The notes under the pieces: generated by a model
Databases searched by the model: none
Seen by the model: the letters and a program-made list of their open reading frames with translations, nothing else
Told to the model about the DNA's origin: nothing
Translations under genes and position numbers: made by a program
Assembly: GCA_020438355.1 (NCBI GenBank)
Contig: JAGQUT010000021.1
Coordinates: 1 to 34,507 of the forward strand
Direction of reading: 5' to 3'
DNA length: 34,507 bases
From: Solirubrobacterales bacterium
Lineage (GTDB): Bacteria > Actinomycetota > Thermoleophilia > Solirubrobacterales > 70-9
Shown: in pieces, positions 1-1,143 of the stretch
How the letters are laid out: each line of letters begins with the position of its first letter
Position numbering within the stretch: the stretch's first letter is position 1

Positions 1-416
<416 letters not shown>

Positions 417-527
417 CTACCGCCTCCTGGGAAAACTGGGGTTGGAAAGACTAGGATTACAAGTCAATTCTACGGCCCTAACCCCTCATTTGCCGCCACC
501 CCGGTGCACCACCGCATTCCGCACTGC

Positions 528-644
528 GCCATGGGGCCGGGCAGCCCTCCCAAAGATGGCCCACCCGTCGCGAGTGAACCCAATCGCTCGCCGACAGGAG
601 CAGTAATCGGAAGCCACTTTGGGAGGGCCACCCGACCCCATGAC
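528..644 (-). ncRNA. Candidate structured RNA: long hairpin upstream of gap
   Basis: Bases 617-644 and 528-555 form a 28-bp helix when read as minus-strand RNA. Every position pairs, four of them as G-U wobbles. On the plus strand those four would be A-C mismatches, so the direction is minus. Inside it, a short TGGC/GCCA helix (613-616 with 557-560) leads to an asymmetric internal loop of about 13 against 2 nt. A second stem (587-598 with 564-574, one bulged G, one more wobble on the same strand) follows, with a 12-nt loop at 575-586. There is no U-run after the helix and no coding signal. It ends 114 nt before the gap start codon. It could be a gap leader element or an independent small RNA. 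It lacks the GNRA-capped SRP motif. Confidence 0.55.
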
Positions 645-704
645 CGCCAACGTGTGCGAAGGACCTGGAACGACCTCTGATTTCGGCGGGTGGGGGCGGC
701 TGGA

Positions 705-739
705 GCCGGCCCATCCATTTAGGGATGTTCTGGGCCGGC
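705..739 (-). terminator. Hairpin downstream of the VOC gene, terminator-like
   Basis: GCCGGCCCA at 705-713 is repeated inverted at 731-739, with an inner ATCC/GGAT complement. It begins 42 bases after the stop of the VOC gene (781). There is no U-tract on either strand, as is common for actinobacterial terminators. It separates the VOC gene from the structured RNA and gap. Confidence 0.5.
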
Positions 740-780
740 GGGTTGAGTATGGAGGCGGAGCGGAGCTCGCCGACTCCTGG

Positions 781-1143
781 TTAATCCTGGGAGACGGTTA
801 TTTCGATGTCGTGACCGTCGGGGTCACGGAGGAAAGCCGAGTAGGAGCCGGAACCGTGGGCGCTCGTTTCGCCGGGCTGGGCGACGTTTGATCCGCCGGA
901 GTTGGTGCCGCCTTCCCAGGCTGCCTTGACGGCGGCGATTCCCGGGGCACCGAGGCTGACCATGGTGCCTTCCGCCCTCACGCCGGTGCGTTCGGTCAGG
1001 AAGAGAATCGGCCTGGAGATGCCGTAGCCGATGGCGTCGGTCCCGTTGACGTGCCGGCGCCAGCCGAGCGGCGAGAGCAGGGCATCGTAAAACGACGCCG
1101 AGCGCGGCAGGTCCGAAACTTCAATGACTACATGGTGAATCAC
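781..1143 (-). CDS. VOC-fold (glyoxalase/bleomycin resistance/dioxygenase superfamily) protein
   Basis: A 120-aa protein starting at GTG 1143. The first residues, MIHHVVIEVSDLPRSASFYD, are the typical opening beta strand and helix of a vicinal-oxygen-chelate module. The end, FLRDPDGHDIEI, is the usual closing strand with an acidic metal-ligand position (Glu in IEI). The length fits a single paired-beta-alpha-beta-beta-beta domain that works as a dimer. Metal ligands at the first His (H3 or H4) and the C-terminal Glu are plausible, so it may be a small metalloenzyme; the substrate cannot be told. It lies 81 bases after the ABC permease on the same strand and is followed by a terminator-like hairpin at 705-739. 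No clear Shine-Dalgarno precedes the GTG. Confidence 0.85.
   Translation of the reverse strand: MIHHVVIEVSDLPRSASFYDALLSPLGWRRHVNGTDAIGYGISRPILFLTERTGVRAEGTMVSLGAPGIAAVKAAWEGGTNSGGSNVAQPGETSAHGSGSYSAFLRDPDGHDIEITVSQD

What the first reader, a model, noticed from the sequence alone, without database searches (positions are those of the whole stretch)
528..644. Unassigned structured RNA between the VOC gene and gap
A 28-bp helix (617-644 with 528-555) plus a bulged apical stem. All five non-Watson-Crick positions I find (four in the long helix, one in the apical stem) are G-U pairs when read as minus-strand RNA, and would be A-C mismatches on the other strand. That is the footprint of a selected RNA, not of a DNA palindrome. 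The long terminal stem, one-sided internal loop and closed apical stem give a 6S-like outline, but the size is small and no known motif is recognised. It could act on gap expression or be an independent small RNA.
Basis: seen in the sequence. Interest (0 to 1): 0.7.

Follow-up and report, generated by a model that had tools for sequence, protein, structure and literature searches.

The report
Dispersed long-hairpin repeat, not gap leader
The hairpin beside the gap gene is one copy of a previously undescribed family of repeated 110-145-base hairpins scattered at gene 3' ends in one genus of uncultured Solirubrobacterales bacteria; its shape is kept by selection on one strand, but it is not a dedicated control element of gap.

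Summary
Window 528-644, minus strand, folds into a 28-bp helix plus apical stem (-92.4 kcal/mol, z -7.7) and every non-Watson-Crick pair is G-U on that strand. It is not a unique RNA gene. The own genome has about five further copies or partial copies; three congeners share the same subfamily, and most of the genus carries relatives. About 60 copies show (i) strong covariation in the stem, (ii) G-U over A-C mismatches 122 to 18, (iii) an invariant apical core (GATTAC ... GACGG) in the window's subfamily, even on unrelated stems, (iv) location at gene 3' ends, with the 3' foot a median 17 nt from an opposing stop codon. The VOC-gap gene pair is conserved in about 10 genomes, but the spacer holds different hairpin repeats or none, and a conserved -10-like TAGAAT block lies between element and gap. 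So a gap leader or 6S-like RNA is unlikely. Best reading: a REP/ERIC/MITE-like dispersed palindromic repeat, part of a 257-bp composite unit (526-782). No Rfam match was found. Y1/RAYT, RT, IS110 and IS630 enzymes are absent from the element-bearing genomes, so the mobiliser is unknown. Transcription was not testable.

The parts
526..644 (-). family-A long-hairpin element (the finding); RNA-sense = minus strand
   Evidence: 87-91% identical copies elsewhere in the same genome
617..644 (-). 5' arm of the terminal stem
528..555 (-). 3' arm of the terminal stem
562..613 (-). apical core CTTCCGATTACT ... GCGACGGGTG; GATTAC and GACGG invariant in 24 copies, including copies with unrelated stems
701..782 (-). 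5' companion module (AGTCGGCGAGC..CCGCCGGCCCA..TGGGCCGGC), itself a dispersed hairpin repeat; with the element it forms a composite unit 526-782 found again on contig C56
463..475 (-). conserved gap-upstream block with -10-like TAGAAT, kept in most relatives whether or not an element is present; lies between element and gap (not part of the element)
784..1143 (-). VOC/glyoxalase-fold gene upstream; its stop codon abuts the composite unit
3..413 (-). gap (GAPDH NAD-binding domain), 5' part in window

Best explanation
The element is one copy of a genus-restricted family of dispersed palindromic repeats (REP/ERIC/MITE-like), about 110-145 bp, that spreads as a non-coding passenger, alone or as the 3' part of composite multi-hairpin units, and settles next to gene 3' ends. 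Shown: multi-copy, dispersed, turnover at orthologous sites, one-strand fold with covariation, 3'-end location, invariant apical core. Inferred: spread by an unidentified enzyme that recognises the one-strand hairpin and its core; when read through from the VOC side the hairpin sits in the transcript's 3' region, where a 30+ bp helix would block 3' exonucleases or polymerase, or be cut by RNase III, insulating VOC mRNA from gap. Any effect on gap would be incidental.
For: Own genome: full or near-full copies on C47, C56, C67 (two) and C78, and a partial one on C133. Congeners G006, G012, G015 carry family A; G009, G010, G011 and others carry family B, with the same terminal foot (GTAGCCGTGGGG..CCCCACGGCGTAACCAC) and a different apex. 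Covariation 0.425 against 0.186 in shuffles and 0.17 or less when slid. G-U 122 against A-C 18. Contexts: 29 convergent, 23 unidirectional, 2 divergent; 3' foot to opposing stop median 17 nt, n = 45. Turnover: VOC-gap spacer; loci with A in one species and B in another, and opposite orientations between the same genes; a 349-nt composite at 95% identity at two G006 loci with different flanks; tandem or nested copies. REPs show the same 3'-end placement, within 20 bp of ORF ends, and GT pairing (PMC3733652).
Against: No mobiliser found: Y1_Tnp, RVT_1, Transposase_20 (IS110) and DDE_3 (IS630) are absent from all element-bearing genomes. No target-site duplication signal. The apical core is better conserved than a mere passenger needs. 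No transcript data. Some copies sit at the same orthologous gene pair in several species, which also fits vertical descent with concerted change.
Confidence: 0.75

Rival explanations
1. A multi-copy structured small RNA family: each copy is transcribed as a discrete RNA whose invariant apical core binds a protein, another RNA or a ligand; the repeats are gene duplicates of a functional RNA.
For: Invariant GATTAC/GACGG core on unrelated stems; strong covariation; G-U bias.
Against: Presence at a locus turns over between congeners; another apex (family B) uses the same foot at the same loci; no Rfam match; copies sit against opposing gene ends, with no conserved promoter seen.
Confidence: 0.15
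2. A cis-regulatory leader or attenuator of gap in its 5' UTR.
For: Same strand, 115 nt upstream of the gap start; G010 has a related hairpin in the same spacer.
Against: Spacer content differs in each congener and is 70-145 nt without an element in G013, G001, G002, G004, G008; the TAGAAT block conserved in most of them lies downstream of the element; other copies sit next to unrelated genes.
Confidence: 0.05
3. A plain DNA palindrome (transcription terminator or protein-binding cruciform) with no strand preference.
For: Placed at convergent 3' ends like a terminator.
Against: Mismatches are strongly strand-biased; asymmetric conserved apex; no run of T after the hairpin in the feet inspected.
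Confidence: 0.05

Closest known systems
GTAG-tagged REP sequences (REP/BIME/REPIN, mobilised by RAYT)
   Same: extragenic palindrome near gene 3' ends, mostly convergent or unidirectional spacers; GTAG at the 5' foot in most copies; G-T pairing; composite and tandem arrays (PMC3733652, PMC2817692)
   Different: stem 30+ bp instead of 5-13; 110-145 nt; fewer than about 20 copies per genome; internal conserved core; no RAYT in element-bearing genomes; the window copy has lost GTAG
ERIC/IRU (127-bp enterobacterial imperfect palindrome)
   Same: size, intergenic location, long stem-loop, orientation matters (PMC2229807)
   Different: no sequence relation tested; no target duplication found here; different phylum
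Correia/NEMIS and other bacterial MITEs
   Same: non-coding, long inverted repeats, RNA hairpins next to genes
   Different: no target-site duplication, no parental transposase found
Rickettsia palindromic elements (RPE)
   Same: 105-146 bp dispersed palindromes forming long stem-loops (PMC2229807)
   Different: RPEs carry open reading frames (PMC2229807 table); here extragenic, with an exchangeable apex and a fixed foot

Membership tests
REP (RAYT-associated) | dispersed multi-copy extragenic palindrome | tested here: met
REP (RAYT-associated) | short stem of 5-13 bp, 20-40 nt in all | tested here: not met
   110-145 nt, 30+ bp stem; definition from PMC3733652
REP (RAYT-associated) | GTAG or GGAG tag at the 5' foot | tested here: inconclusive
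   GTAG in most copies with its last G paired; absent in the window copy
REP (RAYT-associated) | RAYT / Y1 transposase in the genome | tested here: not met
   PF01797 only in G003, which has no CM hit
MITE (ERIC, Correia, RUP type) | terminal inverted repeats, non-coding, under 200 bp | tested here: met
MITE (ERIC, Correia, RUP type) | target-site duplication | tested here: not met
   mean longest direct repeat 4.8 against 4.3 +/- 0.3 for re-paired flanks; exact ends uncertain and a 2-bp duplication such as TA could not be resolved by this test
MITE (ERIC, Correia, RUP type) | related autonomous IS with the same ends | tested here: inconclusive
   solo feet found but no transposase seen between feet; IS630 DDE_3 absent; other IS families not searched
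6S RNA, SRP and other Rfam families | covariance-model match | tested here: not met
IS110 bridge RNA | IS110 recombinase in the genome | tested here: not met
   PF02371 in 0 of 18 genomes
Integron attC | RYYYAAC / GTTRRRY outer boxes in attC order | tested here: not met
   by eye on the feet: GTT at the 5' foot and AAC at the 3' foot, the reverse order; motif order from own knowledge

The most novel reading that the evidence does not exclude
A new class of mobile structured non-coding element: a fixed foot and long stem carrying exchangeable apical heads (A: GATTAC/GACGG core; B: GGGACACTC..GGCUGAAUGCC), recognised as a folded single strand (RNA or one DNA strand) by an enzyme that is neither RAYT, RT, IS110 nor IS630, and inserted against gene 3' ends.
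Probability: 0.2. Interest if true: 0.75.

Novelty: new variant of a known kind. Interest (0 to 1): 0.42.

Why it matters
It shows that REP/ERIC-like palindromic repeats exist in uncultured Thermoleophilia in an oversized, modular form with a selected one-strand fold and no recognisable mobiliser. It also warns that a strongly covarying hairpin upstream of a housekeeping gene can be a dispersed repeat rather than a leader RNA.

Tried and rejected
6S/SRP/leader families: no Rfam match. REP/RAYT membership: no Y1 transposase where elements occur. Retro-element: no RT except in G003, which has no elements. IS110 bridge RNA: none. IS630-type MITE: no DDE_3, no target duplication. attC: box order wrong. 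Phage or plasmid origin: no blastn hit; the one viral pattern hit and the Marinobacter, Schaedlerella, Acidobacteriaceae and Acidimicrobium pattern hits were not examined and are taken as chance. Coding: overlapping small ORFs have no Pfam hit. Wider spread of the core: not seen in 399 genomes of the class outside the genus, though the CM first look scored only 10 candidates per genome.

Full report
Check of the observation. The hairpin is real. On the minus strand, window 518-654 folds at -92.4 kcal/mol, z -7.66, with none of 200 dinucleotide shuffles as good. The arms are 528-555 and 617-644, and every non-Watson-Crick pair is G-U on that strand. gap (GAPDH NAD-binding domain) and the upstream VOC gene are both on the minus strand, so the element lies between two co-directional genes.

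It is a dispersed repeat. A search of the own genome gives copies on C56 (90%), C67 (91% and 87%), C78 (71%) and a partial one on C133. Three congeners carry several copies each. A pattern from the apex hits, among organisms of this group, only MAGs of Solirubrobacterales/Actinomycetota: HKST-UBA63, SSF62 and WHONDRS-SW48 bin.76. There is no match in plasmid or phage collections. No Rfam family matches.

A family with a fixed foot and different heads. A covariance model from 18 copies finds about 40 further long hairpins in the genus and a few weak ones elsewhere in the family. Most share the foot GTAGCCGTGGGG...CCCCACGGCGTAACCAC, but many have another apex (family B, GGGACACTC...GGCTGAATGCC), with further minor apices. 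In the window's type, GATTAC and GACGG are invariant in 24 copies, including copies in G001 whose stems are unrelated in sequence. In 399 genomes of the class this core was seen only in the genus.

One-strand structure. With arms aligned by a strand-symmetric score, mismatches are G-U 122 times and A-C 18 times over 62 copies (copies are related, so this is not a set of independent events). On the core alignment 91% of cells pair (76.7% in shuffles, at most 55% when slid), 18 of 22 pairs have changes on both sides, and the covariation score is 0.425 against 0.186 +/- 0.017. This supports selection on a folded single strand. It does not say whether RNA or one DNA strand; a strand-biased mutation process could add to the G-U excess but would not produce the compensatory changes.

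Gene context. With a simple codon-usage gene finder, 29 copies lie between convergent genes, 23 between co-directional and 2 between divergent ones (all gene pairs of the same loci: 40, 143, 39). The 3' foot is a median 17 nt from the stop codon of an opposing gene (n = 45), while the 5' side is usually 100-280 nt from a gene because other hairpin repeats fill that space. The window copy is one of the co-directional cases.

Turnover. The VOC-gap pair is conserved, but the spacer is short and element-free in G013, G001, G002, G004 and G008, holds other hairpin repeats in G015, G009, G012 and G006, and a related hairpin in G010. A TAGAAT-containing block conserved in most of these genomes lies between the element and gap (463-475). 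At other gene pairs one species has head A and another head B, or the element is inverted. G006 has a 349-nt composite at 95% identity at two loci with different flanks. In the window, 526-782 is such a composite: module 701-782 plus the hairpin, found together on C56. Tandem and nested copies and solo feet occur in G015 and others.

Mechanism. Most likely this is a non-autonomous, palindromic mobile repeat that accumulates at gene 3' ends. When transcribed, its helix would act on the 3' part of VOC transcripts or separate VOC from gap transcription; this step is inference from REP and ERIC work (PMC3733652, PMC2229807). The mobiliser is unknown: Y1/RAYT and RT occur only in G003, which has no CM hit, and IS110 and IS630 are absent from the genus. 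No target duplication was detected.

Verdict. Its functional guess (gap control, or a 6S-like independent RNA) is not. It is a new, oversized and modular variant of REP/ERIC-like repeats.

Noticed in passing
window 701-782 (minus): A second dispersed hairpin repeat (AGTCGGCGAGC...GCCGGCCCA...TGGGCCGGC) starting right after the VOC stop; recurs in G000 C56 and C78 and in G006, also in front of family-B elements.
   Followed up: partly
L183, L184, L185, L193 (VOC-gap spacer of G015, G009, G012, G006): Several further unrelated dispersed hairpin families, e.g. GGTGCCTATGGATT..AATCCATAGGCACC, GTGGGTCGGAT..ATCCGACCCAC, GTGCCGCAGGTTT..AAACCTGCGGCAC; 3' spacers in this genus are packed with palindromes.
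   Followed up: no
L195, L196, L197 (G015): 21-nt tandem copies of the 3' foot (CCCCRCGGCGTAACCACCGR), and in L196 three left feet facing three right feet as if elements were nested.
   Followed up: no
L198, L203, L204, L205, L212: Solo 3' feet without a hairpin next to gene stops; possible target sites or remnants.
   Followed up: no
L117-L132 (G009): Family-B copies share a 5' module (TGCCTGTTGCT...GAGCAGTCGAGCCGATC) containing another long hairpin, giving composite units of about 270 bp.
   Followed up: no
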